Shown one piece after another: positions 78-58,061 of a stretch of 64,000 nt of DNA. Both the position numbers and the translations under genes were made by a program. The notes under the pieces were generated by a model that had not been told where the DNA came from, made no database searches, and was given only the letters and a program-made list of their open reading frames with translations. The number at the start of each line of letters is the position of its first letter. Position 1 is the stretch's first letter. Origin of the DNA: Diadema setosum (lineage: Eukaryota; Echinodermata; Echinoidea; Diadematoida; Diadematidae); assembly GCF_964275005.1 (NCBI RefSeq), contig NC_092688.1, positions 25,720,934 through 25,784,933 on the forward strand, in the 5' to 3' direction.

Positions 78-390
78 CTCCATAACAAGTCACGTTGATC
101 TTGAATTTAACTGGGTAGGTATATATACTGTATCAATAGCTTCACTCGATGGGTAAGAGATAAAGTGGAGGAAGGCTGGTTTTGACCGAGAATTAGGAAA
201 GAAGTCTTCGTGTTTGATATTTCATCGATAATGTTGAATGCCGTCACTCTGTTGTTAATGGACTCCAGAGTAGAGAAAATTCGCCGTCCAAGAGGTGCCC
301 GTAGAACCCAACTAGTACCGTTTACAACACAGCTTCTGTCACACGATATCTCGCGTTCCAATGGCTTTCCCGAACAATTCAAAGTGAAGT
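78..390 (-). pseudogene. Gene A exon 2, CUB-like ectodomain exon (broken)
   Basis: The exon runs from a CAG acceptor to a GGAG/GTAAG donor and is exactly 313 nt, like its counterparts in genes B and C. The first two thirds read as a secreted domain with an LNCSG start, paired cysteines and a WVLRAPLGRRI core, which recalls the W-x-I-x-AP-x-G-x-RI strand of CUB domains. Third-position differences from gene B support this frame here. The frame meets TAA at 107-109, where gene B has GAA. The alternative frame used at the 3' end of B and C meets TGA at 133-135 and 142-144. This exon therefore looks inactivated in A. The CUB assignment is tentative. The rest of the gene lies left of the window. 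Confidence 0.6.
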
Positions 391-7570: not shown

Positions 7571-8711
7571 CTACATATCAATAAAGTTCATATAGATTTC
7601 TTCCTGCGTCGTTGGCTCTGACTCAACCCTAGAAGCTCCTCGTGTTTTATCCACCTGTGCATACAGCTCCTCACACGGTGACGGTTCTGCGACCGAAATG
7701 TTACCTACTGTTTTGTTCACCGTCGCGTACATTTCCTCACAGGTTTGGGGAGTTGCCGTAAAGCTTCTCGGGTTCTGAATCTCGGTGTCGTGGCAGTCAT
7801 TGACATTGAAACTGTCCCCTTTTATCATCTTAGGACGAAGATCATTGGCGAAGTCTTCTTCAGGATTCAACAGACTATAATCTCCCGAGTCGAAAGCATC
7901 AGGACATCGCGGTTGCTTGTTGGTATCAATGCCATTTTGTTGCTCCGGATTCAGTTGATAGTAGAAGACGTCTTCAGAAGGCATGGCTGTTATGGCATCC
8001 TTGCTGGAACAGGGCTTATCATATTTCCTGTCAGGGTAGATCTTATGCTGTAAAGTTTGTCCAATAGGTGACAGACCAGGGTTGTGACTTCCTGTTCTGA
8101 CGTCAGGGAAAGCATGATTGATGCGATCGTACTCGCTTTCTGTAGGCATTTCGGATGAATCATGAAATGACGTCAGTGAATTGTAATAACTGTCATCAAA
8201 CAAGCACGCTTTACCTGTGGGTCTAGCTGCAGCATTCGTCATCTTGTCCAACTTACAAAGGTCTACATCCTGGTATTCATCATCATCACCATAAGCACAC
8301 GCTGGTTGGTCCAGCAATGTCTCCTGCAAGCCACAATATTCATTATCAGAAGGAATATTCATTGAGGTCAAAGAAGTGTCGATGCCGGTATTTATATTAC
8401 TTTCTACAGGAACTGTACAAGGGAAGCCATGATTTATGCTGATAAAGGTAGAAATCCCCTCGTCTATCTCTTCAGCATCCTGGTAGATGTGACTAGTGTG
8501 CGCTAGATGGCTCCCTCTGTCTCCGACGGTGTTACCCAGAATGTGGGGCAAAAAGCGACCAGCTGTATTAGCATTATGATTGGCAGCGTCCGACAAAACG
8601 GCATGATCCGTCCTGACTGGCTCTTGTACAGAAGTGTCGATGGGATTCATCTGAATCTGTCTGCCATTTGGGTGAACATTTGACTGATGCGAAGTTTGGG
8701 ATCTCCAACGT
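7571..8711 (-). CDS. Gene B exon 10, tyrosine-rich cytoplasmic tail
   Basis: This is the terminal coding exon, opening after TTACAG with the base that completes the Arg codon split by the transmembrane exon (AAA AG/A CGT). It is open for 379 residues to TAG. Visible tyrosine motifs include YATV, YAQV, YMNF (YxN, a Grb2-type SH2 site), YYQL, YSLL, YQDV, YCGL, YDRI and YYNSL. The last three are spaced as EEMYATV, EELYAQV and EEIYMNF, which looks like internal repetition of one motif. The tail is acidic and Ser/Asn/Asp-rich with no folded domain recognised. It resembles the tails of adaptor-recruiting immune receptors. The frame remains open upstream of the acceptor to 8770, but the splice site and the gene C match fix the exon start. 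Confidence 0.8.
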
Positions 8712-10507
8712 CTGTAATTTAATGGGGAAATTGAATTCATAATCTTAAGCATAATTATGTGACCGTGCATCGCAAAACCACAAAAAAGTCGCCATACAAG
8801 GATTTTTAGTTAAGAGTAGATTGTGGAAGAGCAGAATCTAAGATTAAAAATGAAATATAATCAACTATACTTCAGTGTAAATAGACTTGCCAAACCCATT
8901 TAAATAATGGAAAGAAAGTCCACACTGCAAAAATGTGTACTCAGAACAGAGGCTTTAAAGTTTAGGGTCTAGGCAAATGCGTAATTTCCCCCAGTTGCCT
9001 ACAATAAAGGGAACAAAGAACATGATACAGATTTCCATGAAAACCACTATTAAGTGGTTGTTAGACTTAACTGAAAGTTTGCTCATCATTCAAAAGTACA
9101 TTTTATTTATTGCCAATATAAACTTCAAATGCAATATCAGTGTGATTTCAATTATTAGAGATGAAAGGTGTTTGAAGATTTTCTAGTGTTTTGAATCGGC
9201 AAAACTGAGAAAGCCTACATTAGACCGAAACAAAGTGTTTGAAAAAAAAAAAACTGCAAAAGAAGCATGGTGCGCAATCACATAGTATAGTGTTGTGGAA
9301 TCAACAGCGCTTGAAGCGTGACCATGTAGTTCAGCGTAATAAAGTCGGAAATCCTAGAGCTGACAAAAAAGAGCTAAATTTATTTTGCCCTTGCTTCGTG
9401 TTCACCAGTGCCACTTCTAGTGCCACTTTTTTAAGGTTCATTTAAATTTGAAGGTCTAGTAAGCTTGGCTTTCTCTTCGCACACTCGTCAGACGAGTGGT
9501 CAGAATTTTCAAGAATTAAAGACCCAGTAGCATGGGTAAATGTGGGTGTCCGATTGAAGTGGTCATAATTCGTTGCCCATCGGGCACACTACGAAACCCC
9601 GAATAGTGCCCATCAGCCACGAGTCAGCGAGTAAGTGCATCGAAACGTACGCTCATCGGTACGGGTCGATTCCAGTCAAGGTTTTTTTTTTTGTTTTTTG
9701 TTTTTTCGGCTGTGTATTTACTTGCACAGAGATCAGTGATAAAACTATGCACAATTCGTCACGGGAATTATCGAATATACCCAAACCGGGCCCACCTTCC
9801 GAATCCATGCATCACCACGCTACGGGGTCTTTAAGAGATGCGATATTTGATCACTAAAAATTATGATAAGTATTACAGTTGTTTTTGAGGTCAGCAAAGT
9901 CAAACAAGATAAATGTCTTTTTATGGTTTTAAAAACCAACGGGAGGCTAATTCAATACTTGGAATTAGACTTGGAGAGATACTCATCCCGTATGATAAGC
10001 CTGCATTTACCAGTTGCAGTCTAACCACTCACTCTCTCTTGACAGCCTTAAAAATTCAAATCAATGTCATTAAGTCTTTGCTTGTTTTCCTGTATTTTCG
10101 TATTCTTTTTTCTTTATTTTTTATTGTGCGTACATAGGCGGCACCTTGGCATTGGTGTGTTGTTGTTTTTTGTTTTTTGTTGTTTTTTTTGGGGGGGGTT
10201 TGTTTTTGTTTTTGGTGGTGTTAGTGGTGGTGGTTTTTGTCTAAGATATTGAACAAATACTGTGTCAATGAAAGTTTTTGGCGACAGATGGAATAATGAC
10301 ATAATAAAATGTCTGGCGACAAGAAACTCAGATTTTCGTGACAACAACTCTATCCACCAATTATGTAAGAGGAATGCAAATCAGCAAACTTACTTAAAGA
10401 TTCATGTGCATTCAATGTACACTCACTTCTGAATATGCTTTGTTTAATGAGTCGCATAAAATGGTTTCACACTCCAGATTTACAAACTAGTTTTTATAGA
10501 AATTCAC

Positions 10508-10625
10508 CTTTTCTGTTGATGCCTACACCAAGCAATGGACAGTATGCCAACCACAGCAAAAACAACGAGAAGGGTTCCCAGGATGTACGTAATAATATTA
10601 TAATTGTTCCCGATACTCTCAGGAT
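10508..10625 (-). CDS. Gene B exon 9, transmembrane segment
   Basis: 118 nt between TTTCAG and AAAAG/GTGAAT. It encodes an Asp/Asn-rich juxtamembrane stretch, then ILGTLLVVFAVVGIL as the core of a single membrane helix, then WCRHQQKR as a basic stop-transfer. Phase 1 in and phase 2 out. The gene C counterpart is also 118 nt and nearly identical, the best-conserved part of the two genes. Confidence 0.85.
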
Positions 10626-10931
10626 CTGAAAGATAAAGCATTAAAATTAAATTTGATTCATTATATATTAAACATATTCAAGATATAAATGTATAACATC
10701 TATGTCTATTCCCAATGTCACATTTATCTATGTACAATTATAAAAAATGATGTTCTTGTAATGTTTAATAGAATATTTATATTAAATGAATTATGCAAAC
10801 ATACATAATATGAAAATATTTTTTATGGTAAAGTAGTTAAGTTTATTACATCAAACTCTAATATATAGACAGAGCGTTTAGAATTTCCAAAATTATAAAA
10901 GGATAACTGGGGAAGAAAATATGGTCAATAA

Positions 10932-12091
10932 TATAGGTTTTTCCGGCCAATTTCGCACTTTTCTCAGTCCAATTCCTAATTGCTGCATTCAATTTAGCAA
11001 AATTTAGCGTAGATGACATGTTTGGTATATTGTATTTCAGTTTCATGATCTCTTCATTCAAATTCATTTAGGAGCATTCAAATTACCTTTAGTCTCATTC
11101 TAATTAACATTTGATCAAGCGAAATTCGTAAAACAAGCACAATTTCGTTATTCGTTCATTCAATTTAGAATGACATAGTCCCGTGATCATGCCCCACTCG
11201 TTCATTCGAATTCATTTTTGGGCATCCAATTTAACATCTTTTGCAGTCAATTTAGCATGTTTATGCTTTGGTTCTTTCTTTCTTTTTTTCAACATAGTTA
11301 TTGTTTTGCAAGCGTCATTACATTTTATATGTTCGTATTTATCTTAGAGATTTTGAGATGCTTATTGAGTCTTCCAGTCCGAAGAAAGTGCATGTGGTCA
11401 CAATTTATCCGGCCGTATAGAGCGCTTTATTCCGAGTGTGTCGCCCAGTTGTAGGAAGTAAAGGTTATGATCACCAAATGTTCCTATAATTCCTATTCTG
11501 TCTTCTTGAGAACTACATGTACGACTGTATCTGTATCTAACTTGTATTGTCATGACTGTAAGAAGATGAAATCAATCTGTAGTATTGGTACATGTAGGTC
11601 TAAAATGACATGTATGGAAGGAAAGGGGCGTTACAGAACAACAAACTCGAGTTATATAGTGTCAAAAATATGATACTTTAACTGCTTAACAGTGCGTGGA
11701 TGAAACAAAAATTCCCATAAAAATACGTGTTTAAATGTTCTCACCTTTTCAAAAAAAAAATAATAAAAAAATAAAATAAAAAATAAAATGACGTTAATTT
11801 GAATGAACATGTTTGGAATTTGACTGCCCATACGCGAAATTGAATGAATGAAATATCCTTTCTGCCAGTGCTGGCGAATTTGAATAACTGAAGACCACGT
11901 GCCAATTTGAATACCCGTTTTACGAATTCGAAAAGCATATGAGCAAATTTCATTGATCGAAATGCTAGATTGAACGACCAACTTGCAATTTTGAGTGACA
12001 GAAAGTGCAGTGACGAGGATTTTCGCTAAATTGAATGAACCTTTAATCAAGTGGACTGACAAAGGTGCGAAATTGGCCGGGAAAACCTATA
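10932..12091. mobile_element. TIR element E1 in gene B intron 8
   Basis: The ends are TATAGGTTTTTCCGGCCAAT on the left and its approximate inverse at about 12066-12091. Phrases such as TTCATTCAATTTAG recur inside both ends as subterminal repeats. Gene C at the matching place (near 56030) runs directly from GTCAATAAT into the shared flank and has no insert. No transposase frame; non-autonomous DNA element of about 1.16 kb. Confidence 0.8.
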
Positions 12092-12657
12092 ACTTTCTTC
12101 AGGCCCTTTACTCCACAGTATTACTCGGTCCTGTAGCACAATGATATGGATGCACTTTCATTGCACTTGTAACCCATTTTCCCCCCATTGAGCTATTCTT
12201 TTTACAGGAAAATGCCTTTTCATTAGATGAACGGATATTTGCATTATGATTGTTATATCACCACCAAAATCTGTTAATCGATGAATAAGAGTTTTCTTTT
12301 TAGCTCCCGTTGAAGAACAGCGCATTGCAACATTTCTTCATTTCTTCATGGACGTTCTTGTTATTCTTGTATCATAAGAATTAAACTATTCTGCACTATG
12401 AGACAGTAACAATTTCAAAACTTGAATCCAGTATATTGATTCATGATGAATTCACTATGAACAAACGGTGAAGAACTACATCTTGTGTGTTTCCGTCAAA
12501 ACCAGGTGGTGAAACAATAATGTTTAGGCAATAGTAGCAAAGTAGTCCTAATGTAATTATTGCGTATATGCAATTAATGCGTTGAGAGGTAAAAGTGGAA
12601 ACACTAGAAGCAAAATATGTTTTACTGCGAGTCAAATCATTTTGATACTAAACTCAC

Positions 12658-12720
12658 TTGACTGAGACGTTTCAGTTGTCGTTCGCAATGACGTAATGGC
12701 TTGGGTAGTCTGCGTCTGCC
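12658..12720 (-). CDS. Gene B exon 8, Ser/Thr/Gln stalk
   Basis: 63 nt between GCACAG and TCAA/GTGAGT, phase 1 to phase 1. It encodes QTQTTQAITSLRTTTETSQS, a probable O-glycosylated membrane-proximal stalk. Gene C has a 69-nt counterpart with the same start. Confidence 0.75.
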
Positions 12721-12899
12721 CTGTGCATTGAGATAAACCCACCACAATCAATTGATGGTATGTACATGCTCACGATATAATATCTGGAAAATACGTTCAT
12801 AATAAATCTTTTAATCTGTCAAATGTCAGATTTTTGTACGCGGTGATAAAAGTATGAAAATGTGTAATGCATGAATGCTCATAATGGAGATGTTGACTT

Positions 12900-13025
12900 T
12901 GCACAGGCCGCCAACCCCCCCCCCCTCCAAAAAAAAAATAATAATAATAATAACAATAATAAATAAGTGGTCTCCCGAAACAAAAAATCAGGGGAAGAGG
13001 AATCAGAAATCCTGAACGCAAAAAA
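12900..13025. repeat. Low-complexity C-run, A-run and AAT-type tracts
   Basis: C10, A-run and (AAT)n tracts inside the gene B intron; gene C has a corresponding C-run and A-run near 56868-56890. Confidence 0.8.
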
Positions 13026-13164
13026 AAAAAATAGAATAGATAAATAAAAAAAGTAACTTAAAAGATTCCGCCAGGAGATTCTTCCCTCAAAGGGAAATAT
13101 ACACTACACAAACATTGACCCTTGACCCTCTGTGGCGCTGTCATCGCCCTATCAAAAGAATAAA

Positions 13165-13216
13165 AAACACACACACACACAAACAAACACACAAAGAAAC
13201 ACACGCACACAAACAC
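13165..13216. repeat. CA-rich microsatellite in gene B intron
   Basis: Imperfect (CA)n with AAAC interruptions. The paralogous place in gene C (57090-57124) has a purer (CA)n. Confidence 0.85.
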
Positions 13217-13565
13217 TTCCACATGGCCCCTGCAGTATATTGAAATCATGCCACTGTCTAGACATTCTATGTCGCAGAACTAATTGTAATACATGTAGTA
13301 AAAAAAGGGGGAAGTGATAGGCTTTGCGGACAACAGAAATTTGAGCAGCTAGTCGCCAGTATACAATCCATGTCTGCGAACTTCATAATCACCATCTTTT
13401 CTGTTGGTGGTGATGTTTATTCCAAGCGCGTAGGGGTCTTTGAGCTGGCACTTTATGAATACTCCAAATATCAATTACTGTATAACATTGTGATCATTCT
13501 ATCATAGCACATACGGTTTTGTTCATAGTATGTTACACTGTATAATTGCCAAATGTACTACATAC

Positions 13566-13634
13566 CTATAGACACGATAGAAGTGCTTTCTGTACTTTGT
13601 GTAGGCATTGTGCTGACATCTGGCCACTCTGTGT
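13566..13634 (-). CDS. Gene B exon 7, Ser/Thr stalk
   Basis: 69 nt between TTCACAG and CTATAG/GTATGT, phase 1 to phase 1. It encodes a TEWPDVSTMPTQSTESTSIV segment suited to an extended glycosylated stalk between the CCP domain and the membrane. The gene C counterpart is 66 nt with a WQDGNNSTMPTQS core. Confidence 0.75.
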   Translation of the reverse strand, partial: TQSGQMSAQCLHKVQKALLSCL

Positions 13635-13802
13635 CTGTGAACAAACATTCCCATCCCCAAAAGCAATGACAAACTCATGTAAAGATCTTGTGTGATAGCA
13701 GACAAAAGATTTATCATAAAGCATACTGAGAGATACATGTGGTGTCGTAATCTTACGATATTAAATGGTAAAAATATCAATCTCTTTGGTCGTTGTTGTA
13801 TG

Positions 13803-14963
13803 TAGGTTTTTTCAGCCTATTTCGCACTTTGTCAGTCCATTTGATAGAAGGTTCGTTCAATTTAGCAAAAAAAAAAAAATAAAAAAAAACCCTCGTTATC
13901 ATACAGTCTGTCTTTCAAATTTGCAACTTGTGCGTCCAAATTAGTATTTCGATTAATGAAATTTGCACATGTGACTTTAGAATTCGTAAAAAGGTATTCA
14001 TATTGGCAGGTACTCTACGTTCATTCAAATTCGCTATCATTGGCCGAAAAGGGTATTTGATCGAGTCATTCAATTTCGCGAATGAGCTATCAAATTCCAA
14101 TTATATTCATTGAAATTTACTTCATGTTATTTCTTTTTTGAAAAGGTGAGAAAATCTAAACGTGTATGTCAATGTACCTCTCTGTTTTCAAATTGTTAAG
14201 CAGTAAAGGTATCATTTTTTTTTTACCCTTTTAGAGTTTGTTGTTCTATAACGCCCCTTTTCTTTCACACATGTCATTATAGGCCTACAAGTACCGGTAC
14301 TTTTTTTTACAGTCATGACAGCACAAGTTACATACAGACGTATATCTCAAGAAAACAGACAAAGAATTATAGAAACATGTGAGGATCATAATCTTGACTA
14401 CCTAGAACTGGCCGACACATTCGGAATAAAGCACTTAACGGCCATATAAGTTGTGACCACATGCGCTATCTGCGGACTGTGAGATTCAATACGCACAATG
14501 AAATAAAAACTGTTGCCAAAATCTAGATACGAAAATATGAAATGTGATGATGTTTACAAAATAATGGCTATGATGAAAGAACATAAAGAAGGAAGCGAGG
14601 CATAAACATGTCTGCTAAACTGACTGCAGAACATGTTACATAGGATGCCCTAAAATGAATTCGAATGAACGAGTGCAGCATGTACGTGATCACGTGACTG
14701 TATCATTCTAAACTGAATGAACGAATAGTAAAATGGCGCTTCTATTACGAATTTCATTTGTTTGTTTTTTTATTTATTTTCTTTCGCAAAAGTGCTGATA
14801 AGAACAAAGTTTAAGATAATTCGAATGATTCAAAATGAATATCACTGAAGAGATCATAATATCAAAATACCGAACATGTAATCTAGGCTAAATTTTGCTA
14901 AATTGAATGCAGCAATTAGGAATTGGACTGTAAGAAGCGCAAATTTGGCCGGTAAAACCCATA
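13803..14963. mobile_element. TIR element E2 in gene B intron 6, inverted relative to E1
   Basis: The right end, read in reverse, matches the left end of E1 through the terminal repeat and on through CAATTCCTAATTGCTGCATT. Internal phrases such as AACTTGT-GTCATGACTGTAA also match in inverse orientation. E2 is therefore a second full-length copy of the same family in opposite orientation. Gene C lacks it: its intron runs from ATCTCTTTGG into TATTTTCAAATTAAGAG near 58540-58565. Confidence 0.8.
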
Positions 14964-15529
14964 TTTTCAAATTAAGAGGAAGGAAATATGCAGTGAGCAT
15001 TTCAGAGCACGTATCATACTCATGAAGAAGATATACCGAGTATAAAATAGATTGATATTCCTCAATGAAATACTCCACGGGGAAACATTGTGTATAATTC
15101 CGAGAAATGGAAAATTTTGCTGGTAAACATTGTCTCATGTCAATGCATTTGAATGACTTATTTCAATTTTTCTCCTATCATGCTTATCAAATATGGCAGT
15201 ACAGGTATTCCCATTGGTGCGTTCTATGTCATGTGGCGTGTTTTAGGTGAAGGCTCAAATGGCATATACATGTATTTGTTATCAGCCCCACTCAGATGCC
15301 GATAACTCTCGGAAAGTATGCTTTAAAAAAAAGGAATACCAAGGAAAAAAGATACAAAAAAATAGAATATCATTTGCAGCTCTTCCCTTTGAGGTATAAT
15401 GTACAATGCTGGGTTTTTTATATTTCTCTTACACTATTGCACTTAGCAGAGATTTCTTTTTTTTAAATCATAATCACTGATAATATACTGTCTAATGGAT
15501 TTCTAATATAGGACAGGCCGTTGCATTAC

Positions 15530-15739
15530 TTTCAACTGCTTGGCACGAAGGGACCGAAGCATTCCATACTGGGAAGTAAGTCGACCATCCCGGTTGTTTC
15601 ACACACTGCAGAGTCGCACTCCCGTTGACGGCGTAATCTTTGTCACAGATGAGAGTTATCTTCGACCCGAAGCTCGTGATATCCGAGTCCCAACTTCCAT
15701 TGGGCACAATCCCAGGATGATCACAAAAACCGACCGAGA
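15530..15739 (-). CDS. Gene B exon 6, CCP/sushi domain
   Basis: 210 nt, phase 1 to phase 1, between TTGAAAG and GAAA/GTAATG. It encodes one CCP module: C-DHPGIVPNGSW opening, GSKITLICDKDYAVNGSATL centre and C-x-Trp-Pro-x-W-x-Cys close. Four cysteines, the Gly-Ser/Asn turn and the Trp before the last Cys are present, as expected of about 60-residue sushi domains. NGSA and similar sites may be N-glycosylated. CCP modules bind protein ligands in complement-type and adhesion receptors. Confidence 0.88.
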
Positions 15740-16189
15740 CTTTCAATGAAGGAGAGATGTATGGAAATCTCATGAGCCATGAGGGGAAAACTTGAAATAA
15801 TCATATCATTGCGATATGTTCCATAGATAAATCATTATGAAGAAAGATACTATGATTATATACATTTAAACAGATTCACTTTTGTATCTCTTCTGGTAGG
15901 GTTCAGATACCTGTTTATCTGCAAAAATCAATTGACAAGCTGACTTGCACAAAACTTTAACATGATTATAAACATTGATTGCATAAAATAAATAACAGTA
16001 AACATATATGAAGTTTAATTTGGTAACTGAAGGTGTGAACCTGACAGAGCATATCGTGAGGATTACAGCTTATTAACAGTCACTGACAAATGGCTGAATA
16101 ATACTGTCGTTATTATTGTCACTGATGCTTGCAACACTTGTCTTATTTCACTCTCTAATGTTAGGTAATCTTTGGCCCTGAATACTCAC

Positions 16190-16459
16190 GGCCAAATGAA
16201 CGATGTCGGTTGTATTCAAAATGTGTCGCAAGAGGACATGTCCAATTGTGAGAAAAGTTTCCGCCAGAAATGATCTGCGCGTACGTTTCAGACTGAAAAC
16301 AAATGCACAATCTTCGATGCATGAGAGCAACGCCATTGTCTTCGGGCTGTCTTCTACAGGTAGACATGCACTCGCTGTCCGAATCAACGCCAAATCCGGT
16401 GTTAAATGCTGTTTGAGAGTTTAGTTGGTTGTCTTTGTAGCATCCAAGAAATCCAGGTT
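16190..16459 (-). CDS. Gene B exon 5, WSC-like domain
   Basis: 270 nt, phase 1 to phase 1, from GCGTAG to GGCC/GTGAGT. It encodes about 90 residues starting EPGFLGCYKD, then ECMSTCRR, then LCICFQSETYAQ and a final WTCPLA. The FLGCY start, the spaced C-xxx-C and the C-x-C-F core match the WSC fold known from yeast stress sensors, Kremen and polycystin-1, where it is thought to bind carbohydrate. It has fewer cysteines at the C-terminal end than the standard domain, so it is diverged or shortened. The exon is fully open here, unlike its gene C counterpart. Confidence 0.75.
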
Positions 16460-16922
16460 CTACGCAGTGACAGAATATTATGATAATTTCAACCTTCCAA
16501 TACCTGAAACTTTGAAGTGTACATTATTTCAAATTCATTTCCACAGCAGCTAGTCACAAATCATCCCTGAAATGGCAGTTGAAAAGCCGTTTTTTTTTTT
16601 TTTTTTAGATACAGGTCAACTATTTTACAACTGTAGCGCCTGAAAAAAATATGTATATGTATAATGTGCGTGTGTGTGTATGTGTGTATGTGTGTGCGTT
16701 GATATCTAAATTTATGGCTGTTCAGAGTGTCGAGTTGTATTCCACCATAGGCCTACACAATTAACGACTAAAAGAGCTCTAGTTCGCATACACCAAACAC
16801 ACTAATTCAGTAAAGATATCAAAGATATCATTCATCAAAGATATCAATATGTTTGCGAACATCTGCTTTATGAATGATAACGAAAATTAACATGTTTTCA
16901 TTTGACATTTTGCATTTCTTAC

Positions 16923-17000
16923 CTTGACATTGGAGTCTAACAATCCTGTTTGAAGAACACACGGTAGTTGGCATTAAGCAGTCCATTAAACGCAGCGAAT
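16923..17000 (-). CDS. Gene B exon 4, SRCR domain second half
   Basis: 78 nt between GCACAG and TCAAG/GTAAGA, phase 1 to phase 1. It encodes DSLRLMDCLMPTTVCSSNRI followed by VRLQCQ, which matches the C-terminal SRCR pattern of a serine/leucine segment, D-C, a middle Cys and V-x-L-x-C. It follows the first half in the same phase and leads directly into the WSC exon. Confidence 0.8.
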
Positions 17001-17632
17001 CTGTGCATCGATATTGTACAAATCGTTCATGAAATGGATAAAGTTTAATGCCGCATTTCCCTTAAAAGTTTGATGCATAGATAACGGCTCTCGTGTTTAA
17101 TGAATATTCATGTAAAGAGAAAATAACTATGGTATAGTAACAAAACATAAAGAGAATATCAGTAATGAATGCGTTTTTATATTATAAGAGTTTCTGTGTA
17201 GAGAAAACGAATATTATTCTAATGAATGTTTTAGTGTTTCATCTATATCACTAAGCTCTGTAATGTAACGATGTCATTGGCAAGTATTATTGATCATCGT
17301 TGTGTACGTGTACAGCAAGAAAACTGGCAGTATAGTTGAAAAACAGAAGAGAAAGAATAACATTAGGAATTTTGGAATGCCGTGATATTAAAAGTGTTGC
17401 ACGTTAAGAAAACGAACCATAGGAATGGTAAAATGCCTACCTCATTAACTTTAGTTTTCTAATATGTACATTGTATTTCCATCGTTGAATATCTTGCAAA
17501 GTTACCTTTGGACGCAAAATGTGCTTTCAGGCGATCAAGATTATTTGATGCGATACATGCTATTCTACCTGGGATGATAAATACATATGCATACACAAGT
17601 TCTGATCGGCATGCATATTATTCTGCAGTTAC

Positions 17633-17869
17633 CTTTACGACACGACAGCACTTGGGTCTTGTTTAGTGTTGCTGTAGCGATTGCGGCCAAATTCTCAAAA
17701 GTATACCCCTTTGCCGCTGGGAAGCCGAGCTCTTCGCAGACCAATTCAGTAGCTTTGGTGGTAAATTCATCAGCCTTGAATTCATCATAGCACACGTATT
17801 TATTTGACTCAGTAACCAATAGACCTTCAAGGGGAGAGGGTCCGTCAGCCAGCTTCACAGATGATATCC
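17633..17869 (-). CDS. Gene B exon 3, SRCR domain first half
   Basis: 237 nt, phase 1 to phase 1, from TTTTCAAG to CGTAAAG/GTAACT. It encodes SSVKLADGPSPLEGLLV, then KYVCYDEFKADEF, then ELVCEELGFPAAKGY and ends at LSCRK. The VKL-DG start, the V-C-x-D-x-F segment and the V-C-x-x-LGF segment are the signature of scavenger receptor cysteine-rich domains. With exon 4 it gives six cysteines. SRCR modules bind polyanionic and microbial ligands; echinoderms carry very large SRCR families. The entry phase needs exon 2 to end in phase 1, which exposes the extra base in exon 2. Confidence 0.85.
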
Positions 17870-18059
17870 CTTGAAAATCAACGACCAACGTTCGATTTTT
17901 TTTTTTTTTGGGGGGGGGGCTAACAGATAATCTATAAGCAATCATTCACACCTTACCTCATTCAAAGTGAAGACAATTATTAGAATTATGGTCTAAATCC
18001 CTCTTCGAGTTATACACTGTGGTTTCCCCTTCACAGTTCCTCTAAAGGAACGGAAGAAG

Positions 18060-18105
18060 CAACGCGATTTATAACTTGTTTTTTTTTTTTGTTTTTTTTT
18101 TTGGC
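18060..18105. repeat. Poly(T) tract in gene B intron 2
   Basis: Two T-runs separated by a single G, low complexity. Confidence 0.85.
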
Positions 18106-18532
18106 TTCTTTTATGTAGATCGCACTCTGCTTTAATTCTCTTCCCCAAACTGGGGAACAGTATGAAGAAAACTGAATAAACTGGGTCATCAATAGAATTC
18201 ATGAATGCAATTCATACGTGACGTAAGGAATAATGATAACACCTATTATTCTAGATAATGTAGTGAATGTCGAGAAATCAATCTATCAACTAATAGTCAG
18301 TACGTGATCAGTACGTCATGGCTTTCTGTTCATCCGGTATTGGAATAAACATATACACCAAATTGAGTACAATATACAGTATAATAATACATTATGACAG
18401 ATACGGATATGGAATGATGGCTATTAGATGAATTGATTTTCACAACACTCATGGACAACGACATTAATGTCGTTGAATCTAAAGATTGCAAAGGTTAAGA
18501 ATTGTTGGTGTGCTGGCATTTTAGACTCATCA

Positions 18533-18695
18533 ACCTCTTCCTTATCGCCACTATCATAATCACCATCAACATTATCGTCACCATCATAATCATCATCACC
18601 ATCATCATCACCATCATCATCTTCATCAATATTTTCATCATCATCATAATCATCATCATCATTATCATCACTATCATCGTCGTCATCATTATGAA
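18533..18695. repeat. Imperfect ATC/CAT trinucleotide repeat
   Basis: About 160 bases dominated by ATC/CAT triplets, open in several frames only because the unit lacks stops. It lies in gene B intron 2 and is absent from the corresponding intron of gene C. Confidence 0.92.
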
Positions 18696-19629
18696 TTATA
18701 CCACAGAGGTGAGAGGAATATTATATGTATATCATATGTTTATATACAGTCATTATTTACGGGCCGGTTATGTCCATTTTGATTTTCCCCCTTTGTATTG
18801 TTAAATAAATATGTATGTTTATAGGATTTATATTTTTGCATATGCATTTATCATTATGTAAATTTTACGTTTTTTCTATAATATTGGATGTGAAATAATT
18901 ATGATTATGTTGGGTGGATTTAATGGAATTTATTGGTAGTGAATTTCGGTAGATTCATATAATTGAACCAATGATTAGAGCTACTTTTTTGTGTGAGTGT
19001 TTCTCAGGTTAAATATATGCTGATATAAGCTCATTTTAGCGGGTTTTTTTTTTTTCGTCCTGAAACAGCTGTTCATGTATCATGTTTGTGTGTAAATGCA
19101 CTTGTATACATGTATATATTTGTGTAACTGTCAATTGTGGTGTGATGGACCGGGTCCACTGTATTTCTTTCCTTGTACTTTCCTGCCTGTGGGCAGGTAG
19201 TATCCTAGGAATATTTCTCACATGCTTTAAGTTGCAAAGGAAATAAAGTATGTTATATACTCTTTCCTGTTTGCATTTTGGGTTTTATTTCTTTTAAGAT
19301 AATGGCCAGGATATCTACCAAGGAAGTATTAAAAACCAACAACTAAAATTTCAGATTTGCCGAACACCCCGCATTGAAATTGCCATCATGTATCTTCCAG
19401 GACAAATCAATGTCGCAAATTTCATTTCGTACATTTCATATTAGTGGGGGACAAACCAGTAATTTGGTGTTTAAGTCGCGTACATATACCTTTGTATATT
19501 TCCAATTAATAATGGTGTATCTAAACTGTTTTGTGTGTCATACACTGAATGTAGCTATGCAATGTTTGTGATTCTCTTTTGGTGCACTGTGTCGTGGAAC
19601 TTTGTGTTTGAGCTTGAGAGTGGCTTATT

Positions 19630-19850
19630 TTGAGTAGTCACCGTGGAAGAATTGAAACTGTATATAAAAAAAAACAAACATACAAAGAAACAACCACGGG
19701 AAAAGAAACCTTAAGCCCCCTGCAAAGGAAAGGACAAGACACCTTGCTTAAAAATGCAAAATCGCTACCGCCATGGGACCCAGAGCGGGAAAAAAAGAAT
19801 TGCTGGTTCTCTCCCCTGAGCCATAACAATCCCATGAAATAATGTTGTCA
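19630..19850 (-). mobile_element. tRNA-derived SINE-like repeat in gene B intron 2
   Basis: Read on the minus strand it begins with a TGGCTCAGGGG A-box-like segment and a degraded B box, followed by an A/C-rich body. The same sequence occupies the matching intron of gene C (62225-62410). Its presence in both copies means it was already there before the B/C duplication. Confidence 0.5.
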
Positions 19851-20275
19851 ATCACTGAATATTTGTATACATTTGTCATTCTGATACATACTTGTATTAT
19901 GGCTTCGATGAAAATGAGGTATATGATACGGCATTTAATTACTTTGTGTACTTTCATTTTACTTCCATGTGATGTCACTGTTTCATCGCGTCTTTTACGT
20001 TATAAGACTTGAATCTATGTTTTTCATTAGTAATGTGTGTCAACGTGTGAGTACGTCCTCGCTGTATAGGTCTTCATGTTTCACTCTTTTAAAAACACGA
20101 TGTCGGCCATTTTGAAATCATCCGGCCTGCTTACTACTAGTGTCAACACAATCATACATTTTATGTCCTGTCATCAAATGGAAACATCAGGTTCGGAGGG
20201 AGAAATCAGTGTAGGAGTAGATAAAAGTCAGTAAACAGTTGTATTCATGGTGATAAAAGTGTAAACTGCACTTAC

Positions 20276-20588
20276 CTTTGTAACACTTCACGTTCATGTT
20301 GAATTTCACAGGGTAGATATATATACCATAACCGTAGCTTCGTCTCATGAGTGAGCGATAAAAAGGGAGAAGACTCTTTGTCTTTCACTATCAGATCCCG
20401 AGTGGTCTTGTTTGCTATTTCATCAAGTCTTTCGAATCCCACCACTCCATTGTTGATGGGATTGAGGGTATAGAGGATTCTCCTTCCACGGGGTGCCTGC
20501 AGAACCCAACTATCACGGTTTCCAACGCAGGTTCGGTTACACCATATCTCCCGTTCTAGTGGAATCCCCGAACAATTTAGACTGAAAT
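20276..20588 (-). CDS. Gene B exon 2, CUB-like exon with a one-base phase conflict
   Basis: 313 nt from CATGCAG to CAAAG/GTAAGT. Read in phase 1 from exon 1 it gives FSLNCSGIPLEREIWC, then SWVLQAPRGRRILYTL and a charged stretch to SSPF. From the TTTTT run near 20358 the other frame is the credible one: it gives YRSLMRRSYGYGIY, then YPVKFNMNVKCYKG, and ends in phase 1 as the SRCR exon requires. Differences from gene A fall on third positions of that second frame near the 3' end. The exon is thus one base long for a continuous reading. CUB-like is a tentative call based on the W-x-L-x-AP-x-G-RRI strand. No ATG lies in the frame, so ORF finders miss this exon. Confidence 0.6.
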
Positions 20589-21010
20589 CTGCATGACGAT
20601 AAGGATCACAAAGTAGTAAAGTAGCAAAGTGTAGATTAATAAATTATAAGAAAAGTAGTAAAAGGAACAATTAAACATTCCTCCAGTGTTCGAACTGATA
20701 TTAATTTGGTGAAATAATTTAAATTCGTAAATCATATACTATTTCTTACCGAATTCTTGGAATGTATTCGTCTTCCTGGAGGTCACAGCTAGTAGTGAAG
20801 TCATATATTGTTTTTCCTTAAAAAGCGTGGCAGATAAAAATGATATAGGTTAACTTAATAGAACCCTAATTACTTGTGGGAATTGTTAGAACAGAGGTTC
20901 AACCATATCATTCCATTCTCCTGTAAACACGGACATGCTATAAGAACTGAGAAAGAGAGGAATGTGCGAGATATGTCATTGATGGAAAGAAAATTGAAAG
21001 GTATACCTAC

Positions 21011-21104
21011 ATGTATTAGTTCCCAATGCTGAGGACTTCAAACAAGGATTGCAACACAAGAAATGAGCAGAAATCCATACTACGAATACCATTCTTTCCT
21101 CCAT
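21011..21104 (-). CDS. Gene B exon 1, signal peptide
   Basis: ATG at 21104 opens MEERMVFVVWISAHFLCC, an acidic/basic start then a hydrophobic core, consistent with a signal peptide. The phase 1 donor ACAT/GTAGGT lines up with the gene A and C donors; an alternative GTATAC donor four bases on would break the frame. Upstream sequence to about 21380 matches the region above gene C, so the promoter was duplicated with the gene. Confidence 0.7.
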
Positions 21105-51459: not shown

Positions 51460-52275
51460 TCATATTGCGAGTTCTGGTTCACGAGGAATACTCTCATACA
51501 CTGTTGAATCGAGGTCATCTTCTCTTCTTGGGGAAATGTCGCTTTCGTATAAATCTATTTTTGTGGACGGAAAGTTGTTTTGGCTCTCACAGCGATCATT
51601 GATGTTTTCATCAGTATGTGCTTCTAAAACGAGATAGCCATGTTCATCCACCTCATGCTCAACTTGTGACGTGCTAGGATAGATAGAAGCTGCATATAAA
51701 GGATCGTTCTGGGTCATCGCATAAGGGTCAAATTCGTCATTTCCTTAGACATTCAAGTAGGTAGGACAGTTCTCCGTTTCTAAAGTGGGTGCAGCTTGGT
51801 CGGAAACTGAAGGAATTTCATGGTAGATTGGAAACTGGTAGTTCCTATATTGACCAGTGTCACCTACAGCTTTGGATGTGGTGGATGATGCTATGTTGAT
51901 GTCTTTACCACAGCGTGAGCCACTGGCAATGTCACTGGCCTCTATGGCATCTCGACTTGCTTCAGGCTGAAATCTAGTAGCTCTGTGCAGACTGACATTG
52001 GAAAGGAGGTAGCCGTCTTCATCAACATCTTCATCTTTATCAAAGTGTCTTGATTGAAGAAATATGACCTTCTTCTTCCCTTTCTTCTCTGAGCCTGACA
52101 TGTCCATGTATAGTGCTTTCCTGCTATTAGCTCCCATATGTATACACTCAAAAAAGTGTTCACTCTCCGGGTGTATGACGTCATAAGAAGGACGTGATCT
52201 AGTCTCTGCTGAATTTGCAATACCTCTCCCGATGCTCATTCTAGTTTCAAGAGACAGGTCTGGTGACATGTGACC
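51460..52275 (-). pseudogene. Gene C exon 11, tyrosine tail with internal stop
   Basis: Opens after GAAATAG in phase 0 with GHMSPDLSLETRM and runs 176 residues to TAA at 51745-51747, directly after TYLNV. The same frame then continues another 95 residues to TAA at 51460-51462. Motifs include YDVI, YMDM, YLLS, YRNY, YHEI and YLNV before the stop, and YAMT, YLVL, YESD and YESI after it. DEDGYLLSN before and DEHGYLVLE after the stop look like copies of one motif, so both parts were once read together. It does not align with the gene B tail. Protein ending at the first stop would keep about half the motifs. Confidence 0.7.
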
Positions 52276-53251
52276 CTATTTCATGAAAGACACAATGAGT
52301 CTCCATGAGGCACATCTATCATACTATTGTATCATATCCTGAAAAGGTATTTTCTGCTTAAAACTAAAATATTACTCATGAAACTTGCAGGATTGCCACA
52401 TCATCAAAGCAAGTTGGAATAAAACTATAGAAAAACGAGACTGAAGAATAGGACCTATTCTAGTGCACTTCTTGGGTCAGCTTATGTCGACGATTGTGTG
52501 TGAACCATGTCAGCATTTAAAACTAAACAGCTAAAAAGCAAGATGTACACTACTTATTGTATTGTCATATAACTTAGAATTTTGGGCACAGCGTAGTAAT
52601 ATACTGTTCCTGATTATGTCAGAGGCACTGCTGTTCATATTTTTTTTTTTAATAATCATGATAGTACGCATACACATTTCGAGGTGGAAAATCGAGATAA
52701 CAAATTTGTAGCAGAAGTGACTAAATTGGTCTCCGAAAACTGCTAAAAAGCACCACTGCTTTCAGGCAATGATTCTAAGCGCAAAAACGTATTTAAAGAA
52801 GATGTACCACTGTAAGAAAATACTATCTATAAAATCAAAAAGTCGACCAGAAATGCATTGTACGATTATGCATGTTTATTTGGCAAAAATAAATCTATGC
52901 AAATTTTTGTGGATTTTCTGGTAGCCGTTGAGAATAAATTCCTTCTTTTTTTTTTTCCAGATTACTCAATATTTTCTCATGCAAGTTCAGCTGCAGGGAG
53001 CATTTATATTCATTTACGTAAGTTAGATGGACCACGAATTGGATTTATTATATTCAAAACTCACTACACGCTGTGAATTTTTAAAGAAAATGAAAAAAAA
53101 AAGTTGAGGAGATTTTTCTGCTACATTTTCCGTCCCAAGCCTGCTCAACCCCCCCCCCCCCACAGAAACACACATACGTACAGTGAAATTCTCACTTCTA
53201 AACTGAAAATTGAAACCCGTGACCCATAAGACGTAATTTGTCTGTCATTAC

Positions 53252-53405
53252 CTCTGCACGGTTCTCATACGCGTTCTCTGGATGAGCTGTGGCGCCTCCG
53301 TGATCTCCTGTGCCTTCAATATGAGTCGAAGTGTTTGGCGGATTCAGTTGCGACTGCACTTCATTGGAATGGACTTTCGACTTTTGACTTGAAGCTTGTC
53401 GACGC
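53252..53405 (-). CDS. Gene C exon 10, start of cytoplasmic tail
   Basis: 154 nt from CTATAG to GCAGAG/GTAATG. It begins with the base that finishes the Arg codon split by the membrane exon and reads RRQASSQKSKVHSNEVQSQL, then NPPNTSTHIEG and ends NAYENRAE. The start aligns with the gene B tail (SQTSHQSNVHPNGRQIQ and MNPIDTS), showing common descent of this juxtamembrane part. In gene C a donor follows, in gene B the exon continues. Confidence 0.65.
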
Positions 53406-55595
53406 CTATACGTATAACATAAAATGAATAAAGAAAGAAAGCAATGCTCTTAGAATGCATATACTGTCAAACTGAAGAGGACGTTACTGTAGATCACAGC
53501 ACAAATAAGTCCATTATCAAAAAATTATTAATATCATTCTTTTTTTTTTTCAATTTTTCATTGCTTTCAATAAACAAATTGTGATACAAAATTTCTGTCA
53601 CTACAGTATCTAACACAGCAGAATACAAATACCACCACTTTTTTCTTTCCTTTTATGTCGTAGTATCTAATGTAGCTCAAATTAGTTTAACTTTTGGCAG
53701 CAGAGTTTTGAGATGAGCAAAATTAAATCGAGATTTAACAGTCCCATTTTCATTGATTAGCATGTAATTATAATCATAATGTTACCAAGGAGGTTCAAGA
53801 GAATGGAGTCACAACCGTCTTATATATCCATTTCCTAGACGTTCGATACCGCCACTCACATATGCCACATATTTGAAGCATGTGCCAAACAGGATCTGCC
53901 GTGCAGAGGGGAAGACAATTGACCCGTGTCTCATTGCATTATCACCAGTCACTCTGTAGGAAGATATGTCTTTGTGATGATAATACTTTTCGCTATCTCT
54001 TCTTATAAAAGACAGGTGATATATAATGGTAAAGACACGGGGATGCGCGAATAGGATTTGGACGAAAAAAAAATGATGAACTAAAAATGAAAATTACTCG
54101 ACTGGGGATATCCGTGCACTAATCTGATAGAATATCAATAAAGAATTATACTTGAAGATTCCAGTTTTATTTGTGGGAATTTAGTGGAAAAGTGATCAAA
54201 CCGGCTTTCCAGGATGAAACAGTTTTAAACACTTTAACATGATACAGCTGTGATCTACACTTTTGCACAAATTTCTGGACGGGATTGATTTTTGTTTTAT
54301 ATGCTTTATCATTAAGTGAGATTTCATTTTATTTAATAAATAAACTAGCAAAATATAGCCAACATTATCAAATGAATCTTCAGATCGCTCAGCGAGACGG
54401 CGGCATCAAACATCGATCATCAAAGGCACACATGCACGTGTGGACGTGTTTTGTACATCAATAGAAAACTGACAACTGTTTGAATAATTACAGCCAGTTG
54501 AAACTCCAAATCTTAAACCTCCTCGATGTTACCAAACATCAGCAGAAGGACGCGATGGGTAAAACAATACTAATTCTGGCATAGATATTTTCTCTGCTAT
54601 CTGATTTATTTTACTTTTTTCGACTCCATATAAACAAACGCGGCATCATGTTTTTGTTTTGGTGATGGTTTTCTTATCAAAATGTGACCCTGCATCACAG
54701 AACCAACAAAAAGTCGCCAGACATGGATTTTCAGCTATTCTGAAAGAGCAGACTCCAAGCTTTAAAATGATATATAATTCAATTAAAATGCACTCTTCTA
54801 ACCTATCTAAATATTGGAAACAAAGCACACACTCTGGAAAAGTGTGAACTGGGAAAAGAGGCTCTAAAGTACATGGTCTATTCAAGCGCGATGAATTGGA
54901 CAAGAAGAGGATGTACGCCATCGGAGCAACCACATCGAAGACATTATCAAATCAAGCTGAAATTCAGCATGCTCTATTAACACATTCTGTCCATGATTAA
55001 TGCCAACTTTTAAAGCAGTAGCATTTTGTTTTCAAAAGTTATTAGAATTGAAAGTGAAGAGTGTGCAAAAGATTTTCATGAAATGAAAGGAGCCTCTAAG
55101 ACATGCCCGATCACACTACTCTACAAAAAAGGGGTTGTTGAAAAACTGCTGAAAACGCACTTTTCAATCCATCTTATACTCCCAAACTTAGGAATGATGT
55201 AGAAGCAGAATAGCTCTTTCAGAAAACATGGAAAACTCAAGATTGACTTGGTTGACCAGTTTCACCTTTTTTGAGTCCTCACGTAAAATCAAGGGGTGCA
55301 ACTTTTTGTTGGTTTTGTCATGGACGATCACAAGTTATGTTGAACAAATACTGTGTCAAAAGTTTTGGGCGACAGATGGAATAATATAATAAAATGTCTG
55401 GCAACCAGAAACTGAGGTTTTCGTGACATGTTCACCTACCAATTAAAAAAGAGGAATGCAGATCATCAGCAAACTTACTTCAACATTCATGTGCATTTAA
55501 TGTACACTCACTTCTGAATGTTATGCTTTGTTTAGTGAGTCGCATAAAATGATTTCACACCCCAGATTTACAAACTTGTTTTGACAAAAATTCAC

Positions 55596-55713
55596 CTTTT
55601 CTGTTGATGCCTACACCAAGCGTTGGACAGTATGCCAACCACAGCAAAAACAACGAGAAAGGTTCCCAGGATGTACATAATAATACCATAATTGTTCTCG
55701 TAACTCTTAGGAT
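55596..55713 (-). CDS. Gene C exon 9, transmembrane segment
   Basis: 118 nt, same boundaries as gene B, encoding an acidic juxtamembrane part, ILGTFLVVFAVVGIL as the helix core and WCRHQQKR as stop-transfer. Only a handful of differences from gene B. Intact. Confidence 0.85.
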
Positions 55714-56580
55714 CTGGAAGATAAAGCATTAAGTTCAAATTCAATCTATAATATTTAACATATTTAAGATATAAATATAAAATATTTATATGTATTCCGA
55801 ATGTCACATTTTATTTCGATACATTTACAAAATAATATAATATAATCATAATGTTTAGTAAAACATCGATATTGCAATGATTTATAATTACATGCAAATA
55901 TACATAATATGAAAATATTTTTGATGGTAAAGTAGTAAAGTTCATCCCATCAAACTCTGATATTTAAGCAGAGCGTTTAGACTTTCCAAAATTATAAAAG
56001 AATAACGGGGAACAAAATATGGTCAATAATTGCTTACTTTACTTCACAATATTACTTGGCCCTTTTGCACAATGATATGGATGCACTTTCATTGCACTTG
56101 TAACCCATTTTCCCTCATTGACCCTTTTTTTCAGGAAAATGCCTTTTCATTAGATCAACTGACATTTGCATAATGATAGTTACATCACCACGAAAATCTG
56201 ATAATCGATTGATAAGAGCTTTCTTTTCAGTTCCTGTTGAAGAACGGCGCATTGCAACATTTCTTCATTTCTTCATGGATATTTTTTTTTATTCTTGTAT
56301 CGTAAGAATTAAACTCTTCTTCAGTAAGAGACAGTAACAGTTTCAAAAGTTGAATCCAGTATATTGATCCATGATCAATTCACTATGAAAAAACAATGAA
56401 GAACCACATCTAGTGTGTTTGCGTCTAAACCAGGTGGTGAAACAATAATGTTTAGGCAATAGTAGCGAAGTTGTCCAATGTAGTTATTGCGTATATGCAA
56501 TTAATTCGTTAGGAGATAAAAGTGGAAACACTAGAAACAAAAACACATTTTTACTACGGCTCGAATCAATATAAACTCAC

Positions 56581-56649
56581 CTGACTGAGACGGAGACGTT
56601 TCAGTTGTCTCTCGCAATGACGTACTGTCTTGAGTAGTCTGCGTCTGCC
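56581..56649 (-). CDS. Gene C exon 8, Ser/Thr/Gln stalk
   Basis: 69 nt, phase 1 to 1, GCACAG to TCAG/GTGAGT, reading QTQTTQDSTSLRETTETSPS. Two codons longer than in gene B. Confidence 0.75.
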
Positions 56650-57090
56650 CTGTGCATTGAGATAAACCCACCACAATTATTGATGGTATACATGCTGATG
56701 ATATAATGTCCTAAACACCTATCCCCAAGATGGAAAATACGATCATAATAGATCTATTTATCTATTCTAGATATCAGACTTGTGTACGTGGTGATAAAAG
56801 TATGAAAAGTTGTAGTGTATGAATGCTCATAATGAAGATGTTGACATTGCACAGGCCGCTGATCCTCCCCCCCCCCAAAAAAAAAAAGGAAAAATGTCTG
56901 GCTCTTCTGAAACAAAAGTAAGAGAAGAGGAATCAGAAATCCTGTTACCAAAAGAGTAAAAAAAAAGAAAAAAAAACATAATTCAAAAATTCCGCCATGA
57001 GATGTTTCCCCTCAAAGGGAAATATACATACACAGAACATTTACCCTTGACCCTCTTTGGAGTAGTCATCACCCTATCAAAAAGACTCAC

Positions 57091-57124
57091 TCACTCACAC
57101 ACACACACACACACACACACACAT
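57091..57124. repeat. CA microsatellite in gene C intron
   Basis: Pure CA repeat, paralogous to the CA-rich tract at 13165 in gene B. Confidence 0.92.
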
Positions 57125-57217
57125 GGCCCCTACATTGTATTGAATTCATACCATTGTCTTGTTATTGTATGTCGCAAAATAGTATTTAAAACTAGATATA
57201 TCGCTACGGCGACTGAT

Positions 57218-58061
57218 ATGCCTCCGCCATAATGCATGGTTCTCCTAATAGGTCTATAGTACAATGTCTTGACAATGTGTGATGACAGTTTCACACAATT
57301 GGCAAAATATTAAAATGACAGGTTTGCCACAAATGTGCTGAATGTTCACTTTCCTAGAACTAGGTTCAATTGGATAAATTATTCAAATGTCAGAGTGCAG
57401 GTATTTGGGGAACTGATGATTTTTACTTGACTTTTGACCCTTTTATAAGTTTATGCATTGAGTAATTTTCAAGGTATTGAGAAAAAGTATAATTTCAGTA
57501 TCAAATGGGAAAATAGCATTATCTAAACCTGGTCTTTGACCTTTGACCTCACAGTTCCACAGAGAATCACTGTTAGGTAGAACATGCATAAATATGTAAG
57601 TTTCATGATGATACCTTGAGTTACTTTCGAGATATGGAGGAAAAAGTGCAATTTAGCACTTTCACTTGACCTTTGACCTTTTGACCTTTGACCTTTTGGC
57701 AAGAAACTTCCCCAAAAATATATATTGGGTAATACATGCCATACATCAAGTTTAAAAAAAAAAAAAACCTTCAGGCATATTGCATTTTAAGGTACCTTGA
57801 ACCATTTGCGAGATATGGAGAAAAACATGAAATTTCAATTTTCTTTTCACAAAATAACCTGTGACCTTTGACCTTTGACCCTGTGACCCTAAAATCCACA
57901 CAAAGTATTATCCCCCAAGGATATACCCTAATACCAAGTTTGATGTAAAACCACCACACGGTTCTTGAGATATCGACAAAAACAAAACGGGACGGACGTA
58001 CGGACGGACGGACGGACGACCCGAAAACATAATGCCTCCGGCCACTTCGTTGCGGAGGCAT
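57218..58061. mobile_element. Repeat element with ATGCCTCCGC ends and TGACCTTTGACC runs
   Basis: ATGCCTCCGC at the left edge is matched by its inverse GCGGAGGCAT at 58052-58061. The interior has repeated GAGATATGGAG and TGACCTTTGACC phrases and a GGAC tetranucleotide run at 57990-58018. Gene B lacks it: its intron continues directly into the shared ATAGGCTTTGC flank. Hence a gene C-specific insertion, or loss from B. Confidence 0.7.

What the first reader, a model, noticed from the sequence alone, without database searches (positions are those of the whole stretch)
7571..21104. Receptor architecture combining CUB-like, SRCR, WSC, CCP, stalk, membrane helix and a phosphotyrosine-type tail
Ten exons with matching phases give one predicted protein with four different extracellular modules and about a dozen tyrosine motifs. 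SRCR, WSC and CCP modules are each known, but I do not know this order with a tyrosine-rich signalling tail as a described family. It is a plausible innate immune or scavenging receptor in a multi-copy tandem cluster.
Basis: partly seen in the sequence, partly recalled or inferred. Interest (0 to 1): 0.75.

Follow-up and report, generated by a model that had tools for sequence, protein, structure and literature searches.

The report
Sea urchin receptors with offset reading frame
A sea urchin gene for a four-module cell-surface receptor belongs to a very large family, and in most of the copies examined the first module sits one base out of frame with the rest at a conserved spot, as if the cell must change reading frame there to make the whole receptor.

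Summary
The window is from Diadema setosum (inferred from tail exons just outside it that match D. setosum database proteins at 100%). The order is not new as a family: database proteins of Strongylocentrotus and Lytechinus have CUB, SRCR, WSC and CCP in this order, and Diadema has many more copies.

The CUB exon ends one frame away from SRCR. This offset occurs in 52 of 67 CUB exons read (12 continuous, 3 without the motif). Both halves are conserved in their own frames. In 48 offset copies with equal spacing, stop codons confine the switch to about 10 bases, where [T/C]ATATAT is present in 45. A neutral simulation puts stops in about 22 of 25 such CUB exons; none has one.

Best reading: recoding (ribosomal or RNA slippage at UAUAUAU) joins CUB to the receptor. 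Main rival: alternative splicing giving a secreted CUB and a CUB-less receptor. No transcript or protein was seen.

The parts
21011..21104 (-). exon 1, start codon and signal peptide (MEERMVFVVWISAHFLCC...), phase 1, donor T|GTAGGT
   Evidence: the same exon is seen in copies c4 and c5 and in part in c2, and in c6 and c7
20276..20588 (-). exon 2, CUB module; frame changes by +1 inside the exon
20319..20325 (-). TATATAT heptamer, proposed frame-change site
17633..17869 (-). exon 3, SRCR first part
   Evidence: Pfam SRCR_2 2e-7 for exons 3+4
16923..17000 (-). exon 4, SRCR second part
16190..16459 (-). exon 5, WSC module
   Evidence: Pfam WSC 0.0076 (below cut-off); Kremen-1 match
15530..15739 (-). 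exon 6, CCP (Sushi) module
   Evidence: Pfam Sushi 2.7e-9
13566..13634 (-). exon 7, Ser/Thr-rich stalk
12658..12720 (-). exon 8, Ser/Thr-rich stalk
10508..10625 (-). exon 9, membrane helix
7571..8711 (-). exon 10, cytoplasmic tail of 380 residues, 15 Tyr, stop
   Evidence: 314 of 380 residues identical to D. antillarum P0001
7396..7401 (-). AATAAA about 170 bases after the stop, possible poly(A) signal
51463..63203 (-). second copy (c2): CUB 63203-62898, SRCR, WSC, CCP, TM, tail type B; stop codons in SRCR, WSC, CCP and tail, pseudogene-like
78..390 (-). CUB exon of a third copy (c3), the rest of which lies left of the window

Best explanation
The gene makes a type I surface receptor of an echinoid CUB-SRCR-WSC-CCP family hugely expanded in Diadema: the outer modules probably bind microbial or damage ligands and the tyrosines, once phosphorylated, recruit SH2 proteins (inferred). 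In most copies examined, this one included, the CUB module is read in one frame and everything after it in the +1 frame. I propose that translation starts at the signal peptide, reads CUB, and at UAU-AUA-U a share of ribosomes (or of transcripts) shifts frame: a -2 slip re-pairs AUA on AUA exactly; a +1 slip or a UA-unit slippage in the RNA gives the same frame. Shifted products are full receptors. Unshifted ones stop near the end of the CUB exon or a few codons into the SRCR exon, leaving a short secreted CUB or a decayed mRNA. Shown: gene model by sequence, family, offset, conservation of both frames, narrow switch window. Inferred: the recoding event, its type, and all function.
For: Offset in 52 of 67 CUB exons on contigs C4, C7, C6, C17, C24 and C30; 12 continuous, 3 without the motif (sequences). 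Of 150 scored CUB exons 146 have no stop in the CUB frame. 25 of 25 full offset exons have no stop over 84 codons; neutral simulation on a tree of the 27 full exons, started from c1 at the midpoint, gives 21.7 of 25 with a stop on average, and 0 of 2000 runs without any. Only 3-base internal gaps in that alignment, while introns show a gap run per 13-26 substitutions. Third-position excess lies in frame 1 upstream (P 0.003) and in frame +1 downstream (P 0.002), not in the swapped frames (0.54, 0.92). 52 of 52 offset copies have a stop-free switch window; in the 48 with equal spacing the last +1 stop starts at -18 and the first frame-1 stop at -7, leaving the stretch where [T/C]ATATAT (-13 to -7) occurs in 45 of 48. 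Spacing differs in L054 (+6), L093 and the like-spaced L092 (+9) and L094 (+3), and the offset is kept. GGTATATATNNCTACCC has 37 genome matches, 36 of them on or abutting a CUB exon listed; reversed control 0. The first CUB cysteine is kept in 25 of 25 full offset exons and the last one also; I presume that they pair.
Against: No RNA, protein or reporter data. No stable RNA structure downstream (z between -0.8 and +1.8 in four offset copies). Three of 48 lack the heptamer (L059, L062, L068), and L092 has a frame-1 stop upstream of it, perhaps dead copies. Among recent copies dN/dS of CUB is near 1 (pooled 1.1 below dS 0.1). An internal splice acceptor that would bypass CUB is open in 24 of 25 full exons, and an in-frame excision of most of the CUB core is possible in 23 of 25. 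L049, continuous, groups inside the midpoint-rooted tree, so one origin of the offset is not proven. c6 and L055 regained a continuous frame by apparent 4-base losses. Each base of the heptamer is a first or second codon base in one of the two frames, so dual coding could explain part of its invariance.
Confidence: 0.5

Rival explanations
1. Alternative splicing, no recoding. One mRNA includes the whole CUB exon and gives a secreted CUB. Another skips the exon (exon 1 and SRCR are both phase 1) or enters it at the internal AAG|C acceptor just before the hinge, and gives a receptor without CUB.
For: Exon 1 with donor T|GTAGGT is phase 1 and fits the SRCR exon directly. The internal acceptor is open in the +1 frame in 24 of 25 full offset exons; it needs the phase-2 end of exon 1. 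Database model P0011, by eye, joins its signal peptide to an internal site in the CUB exon.
Against: Plain skipping leaves the +1-frame conservation of PVKFxMxVKCY unexplained. A +1-frame stop lies between that acceptor and the hinge in c3, L062, L063, L067, L072, L075, L077 and L081. Of GT/GC-AG excisions of 20 bases or more inside the exon the best fits 23 of 25 copies and removes most of the CUB. A frame-1 secreted CUB would lack its last strand and cysteine.
Confidence: 0.28
2. The CUB exon is a relic: an ancestral small deletion broke it and copies inherited the break; the working receptor starts elsewhere.
For: By pattern, 19 of 66 homologue records start at a Met in the last CUB strand. 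dN/dS is near 1 among recent copies. c6 and L055 regained a continuous frame by apparent 4-base losses.
Against: No frame-1 stop in 25 of 25 exons against 21.7 expected, no frame-breaking gap. That Met is Ile or Leu in several copies, such as c3, c6 and L043, and a protein starting there has no signal peptide.
Confidence: 0.1
3. Sequencing or assembly error: one TA unit lost in a TA run.
For: Most offset copies have the TA run; one more TA unit would put them in frame.
Against: L059 has no TA run and is still offset. D. antillarum protein P0037, from a different species' record, reads by eye the +1 frame across the same hinge. The run is only about four units long.
Confidence: 0.04

Closest known systems
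S. purpuratus LOC105446516 (P0057, P0058), 'CUB and sushi domain-containing protein 2' (P0059), LOC105443522 (P0060), LOC105444995 (P0061), LOC105444993 (P0063), LOC105446013 (P0062); L. pictus LOC129266185 (P0064)
   Same: CUB, SRCR, WSC, CCP in this order (P0062 has no WSC hit, its WSC-like part was placed by its EPGYKGC start and alignment); by eye a membrane helix and Tyr-bearing tail in P0062, P0064, P0061 and P0058 (sequences)
   Different: CUB is continuous with SRCR in the database protein; tails are of other sequence; their DNA was not seen
Sea urchin SRCR gene superfamily (PMC10855680, passages seen)
   Same: SRCR genes in tandem clusters: 253 of 359 in S. purpuratus; 38 Sushi, 36 WSC and 35 CUB domains counted among them
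   Different: the passages seen name no CUB-SRCR-WSC-CCP family and no frame change
Kremen (kringle-WSC-CUB receptor)
   Same: WSC profile match; Kremen also among the fold matches of P0062
   Different: no SRCR or CCP, different order (architecture recalled)
Antizyme +1 and arterivirus nsp2 -2/-1 programmed frameshifting (PMC6675879 and PMC7618843 seen as search listing; antizyme recalled)
   Same: two frames of one mRNA joined at a short conserved site
   Different: animal receptor genes in large numbers, a UA-repeat site, no stimulator identified, no product observed

Membership tests
SRCR superfamily | SRCR domain above Pfam cut-off | tested here: met
   SRCR_2 32 bits, cut-off 27; PF00530 24.9 bits, below its cut-off of 26.1
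CCP/Sushi proteins | Sushi domain above cut-off | tested here: met
   37.7 bits, cut-off 20.7
WSC proteins | WSC domain above cut-off | tested here: inconclusive
   16.9 bits, cut-off 27.8 for the window exon; homologue P0057 28.0 bits; profile finds Kremen-1 at 0.005
CUB proteins | CUB domain | tested here: inconclusive
   no Pfam hit; hhalign 95.5% with sea urchin CUBs, made with the continuous copies c6 and L049; single CUB chains match the model of homologue P0062 at target TM 0.75-0.82, query range not shown; window exon model of low confidence, pLDDT 62, not searched
Echinoid CUB-SRCR-WSC-CCP receptors | same module order in other sea urchins | tested here: met
ITAM receptors | two YxxL/I 6-12 apart | tested here: not met
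   no match in the tail
ITIM receptors | [SIVL]xYxx[IVL] | tested here: inconclusive
   three sequence matches in the tail; phosphorylation not testable here
Programmed frameshift genes | conserved offset with coding constraint in both frames | tested here: met
Programmed frameshift genes | downstream stimulatory structure | tested here: not met
   no stable fold in the tested windows; not every known case has one (recalled)
Programmed frameshift genes | frameshift product observed | not testable with these tools
   no RNA or protein data

The most novel reading that the evidence does not exclude
Diadema carries of the order of a hundred surface-receptor genes (extrapolated from 52 of 67 hinges and at least 150 CUB exons) whose full-length product needs a programmed frame change (a -2 slip of AUA on UAUAUAU, or an equivalent RNA slippage) inside the CUB module, so that one site sets the ratio of secreted CUB to membrane receptor across a whole receptor repertoire.
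Probability: 0.42. Interest if true: 0.92.

Novelty: new variant of a known kind. Interest (0 to 1): 0.7.

Why it matters
If recoding is real, it would be an animal receptor repertoire in which many paralogues share a frameshift site; [quoted passage not shown] It would also mean that many database models of these genes are cut short: 19 of 66 records fit a start inside the last CUB strand. If splicing is the answer instead, it is still a dual-output exon kept in two frames across a large receptor family, in a genus hit by mass die-offs (recalled).

Tried and rejected
Exon 20788-20750 as a real exon: splice sites missing or sequence deleted in c2, c4 and c5. Exon 1 ending at 21007 with acceptor 20581: also in frame, but the donor looks poorer and copy c3 lacks that acceptor; kept only as an alternative. 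Internal start at the Met of MNVKCY: not conserved. CCC as the slip site: 43 of 48, so not universal. Hidden GT/GC-AG excision of 20 bases or more inside the CUB exon: best 23 of 25, and it removes the CUB core. Downstream RNA structure: none. Rfam scan of the window: no match. BLASTP of the window CUB to P0062: not significant. The structure model of the window exon alone was poor and was not searched. Paper searches: SRCR + WSC domain + sea urchin, WSC + SRCR + CUB + echinoderm and frameshifting + immune receptor + gene family + sea urchin returned no paper; the five-term SRCR search listed nine, of which I looked into one; programmed ribosomal frameshifting + sea urchin listed four, judged off topic from the listing; two Diadema searches listed two each, not opened. 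Genome-wide counts of the other hinge lengths and of WSC exons did not complete.
Full report
The gene. On the minus strand, 21104-7571, ten exons with GT-AG sites join in phase 1 up to the membrane exon, apart from the frame change inside exon 2. Exon 1 gives a signal peptide, exon 2 a CUB-like module, exons 3-4 SRCR, exon 5 WSC, exon 6 CCP, exons 7-8 a Ser/Thr stalk, exon 9 the membrane helix, exon 10 a tail of 380 residues. Pfam accepts SRCR_2 and Sushi, puts WSC below its cut-off and does not see CUB. WSC is backed by a profile match to Kremen-1. CUB is backed by hhalign of two continuous Diadema copies to sea urchin CUBs; the model of homologue P0062 (mean pLDDT 60) matches single known CUB chains at target TM 0.75-0.82, the matched part of the query not being shown.

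Species and family. All 47 homologues in the first search are from Diadema setosum or D. antillarum. Tail exons just right of the window are 100% identical to D. setosum proteins P0007 and P0004, and the contig is 48,780,474 bases against a D. setosum contig of 48,786,125. No database protein matched the window's own copy at that level; the best was D. antillarum P0001 at 79%. CUB, SRCR, WSC and Sushi in the same order are found in six S. purpuratus models from five loci and in one L. pictus protein, WSC above its cut-off in only one of them (P0057); P0062 shows no WSC hit but has the aligned stretch. So the order is an echinoid family, annotated mostly as uncharacterized. Seven copies lie on one strand over about 173 kb of the region fetched. 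Genome-wide, 232 candidates for the CUB exon were found and 150 scored, all at E below 1e-15, in clusters on several contigs. Copy c2 in the window carries stops and looks dead; c1, c3, c4 and c7 are open in the exons compared.

The frame offset. In the window gene the CUB exon is open in frame 1 as LNC...KLRLWYIY and in the +1 frame as YPVKFNMNVKCYKG, and only the latter runs into SRCR. S. purpuratus CUBs end GFNISVSC or similar in one continuous protein. Six of seven cluster copies share the break; c6 is continuous and 4 bases shorter in the TA run. I read 60 further hinges, so 67 of the 150 scored exons: 20 full exons, mostly the next best matches, and 40 chosen for spread. By a fixed motif, 52 of 67 are offset by +1, 12 are continuous and 3 lack the motif; by eye, of those three L074 is +1, L069 is +2 and L064 is decayed. 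Continuous copies are c6, L049, L055, L060, L070, L071 and L085-L090. The sample leans to close relatives of the window copy.

Both halves are under constraint. 25 of 25 full offset exons have no frame-1 stop in 84 codons; pooled pN/pS is 1.1 for pairs with dS below 0.1, 0.7 at 0.1-0.3, 0.55 at 0.3-0.6, 0.56 at 0.6-1.0 and 0.45 above 1. Simulated neutral evolution on the FastTree tree gave 21.7 of 25 tips with a stop on average, and no run of 2000 without any; it assumes that the offset is as old as the midpoint root. Heterozygosity by codon position upstream is 0.242, 0.121, 0.420 in frame 1; downstream it is 0.146, 0.164, 0.364 in frame +1. Over the whole CUB stretch the frame-1 third-position excess is weaker (0.205, 0.149, 0.244). 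The motif used to find the downstream half demands its cysteine, so that cysteine's 52 of 52 is by construction; by eye L074 and L069 keep it too.

Where the switch must be. Relative to the Pro codon of PVKF, over 48 copies with the 16-base hinge, the latest +1-frame stop starts at -18 and the earliest frame-1 stop at -7. Between them lies [T/C]ATATAT at -13 to -7 in 45 of 48, the least variable run there, with more variable bases on both sides. Copies with other spacing, L054 (+6), L093 and the like-spaced L092 (+9) and L094 (+3), keep the offset; L092 has a frame-1 stop too early for this site. Five copies (L038, L061, L065, L068, L094) have a frame-1 stop directly at the site. Each base here is also a first or second codon base in one of the two frames, so dual coding could explain part of the invariance. 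Without a switch, c1, c4 and c7 stop 109 codons after the start of CUB, seven codons into the SRCR exon, and c3 stops just past the hinge.

Mechanism. A tRNA on AUA can re-pair on the preceding AUA after a -2 slip, which enters the +1 frame; a +1 slip or an added UA in the RNA would do the same. No downstream structure stands out. The strongest rival is splicing that separates a secreted CUB from a CUB-less receptor: exon 1 and SRCR are both phase 1, and an internal acceptor is open in 24 of 25 full exons. Against it stand the coding signature of the last CUB strand and the eight copies whose +1 frame is closed between that acceptor and the hinge. I cannot decide between them without RNA.

Tail. 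15 Tyr; eight fit YxxV/L/I/M, three fit the ITIM pattern, none an ITAM; 15 of 15 are kept in D. antillarum P0001 at 314 of 380 identical residues. Copies differ in tail type: c1 has type A; c2, c4, c5, c6 and, at 65%, c3 have type B; c7's last exon was not fetched. Type B carries motifs such as YESIP and GYLVLE, like YETIP and GYLI/GYLV in P0062 and P0064 (by eye).

Literature. PMC10855680 (passages seen) counts 359 SRCR genes in S. purpuratus, 253 in tandem clusters, with 38 Sushi, 36 WSC and 35 CUB domains among them, so the domain mixture is in print. Three searches of this library for the combination or for frame changes in such genes returned no paper; two returned lists (33: nine, one looked into; 93: four, not opened).

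Noticed in passing
window 10930-12091 and about 13827-14965: Two copies in opposite orientation of an AT-rich element with inverted ends (arms 10932-11002/12021-12091), lying in introns of the gene; probably a DNA transposon or MITE.
   Followed up: partly
window 51463-63203: Second receptor copy with stops in SRCR, WSC, CCP and tail, whose type B tail is 92% identical to that of copy c5 (P0004).
   Followed up: yes
L085-L090, L060 (contig C6): A set of CUB exons with a different hinge and a continuous frame, possibly nearer the ancestral state.
   Followed up: partly
L069 (contig C16): One CUB exon that by eye has a +2 offset instead of +1.
   Followed up: no
protein P0050 (D. antillarum): A family member whose tail holds many repeats around GYLVLEE, a multiplied tyrosine motif.
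   Followed up: no
G000 contig C12 10.73-10.79 Mb: A very dense array of similar SRCR domains, apparently a separate many-domain SRCR gene or cluster.
   Followed up: no
WSC exons of the cluster: Several pairs show dN/dS above 1 (for example c1-c2 1.67, c6-c2 2.02; c2 is pseudogene-like; also c1-c6 1.26), pooled pN/pS 0.76, the highest of the modules.
   Followed up: partly
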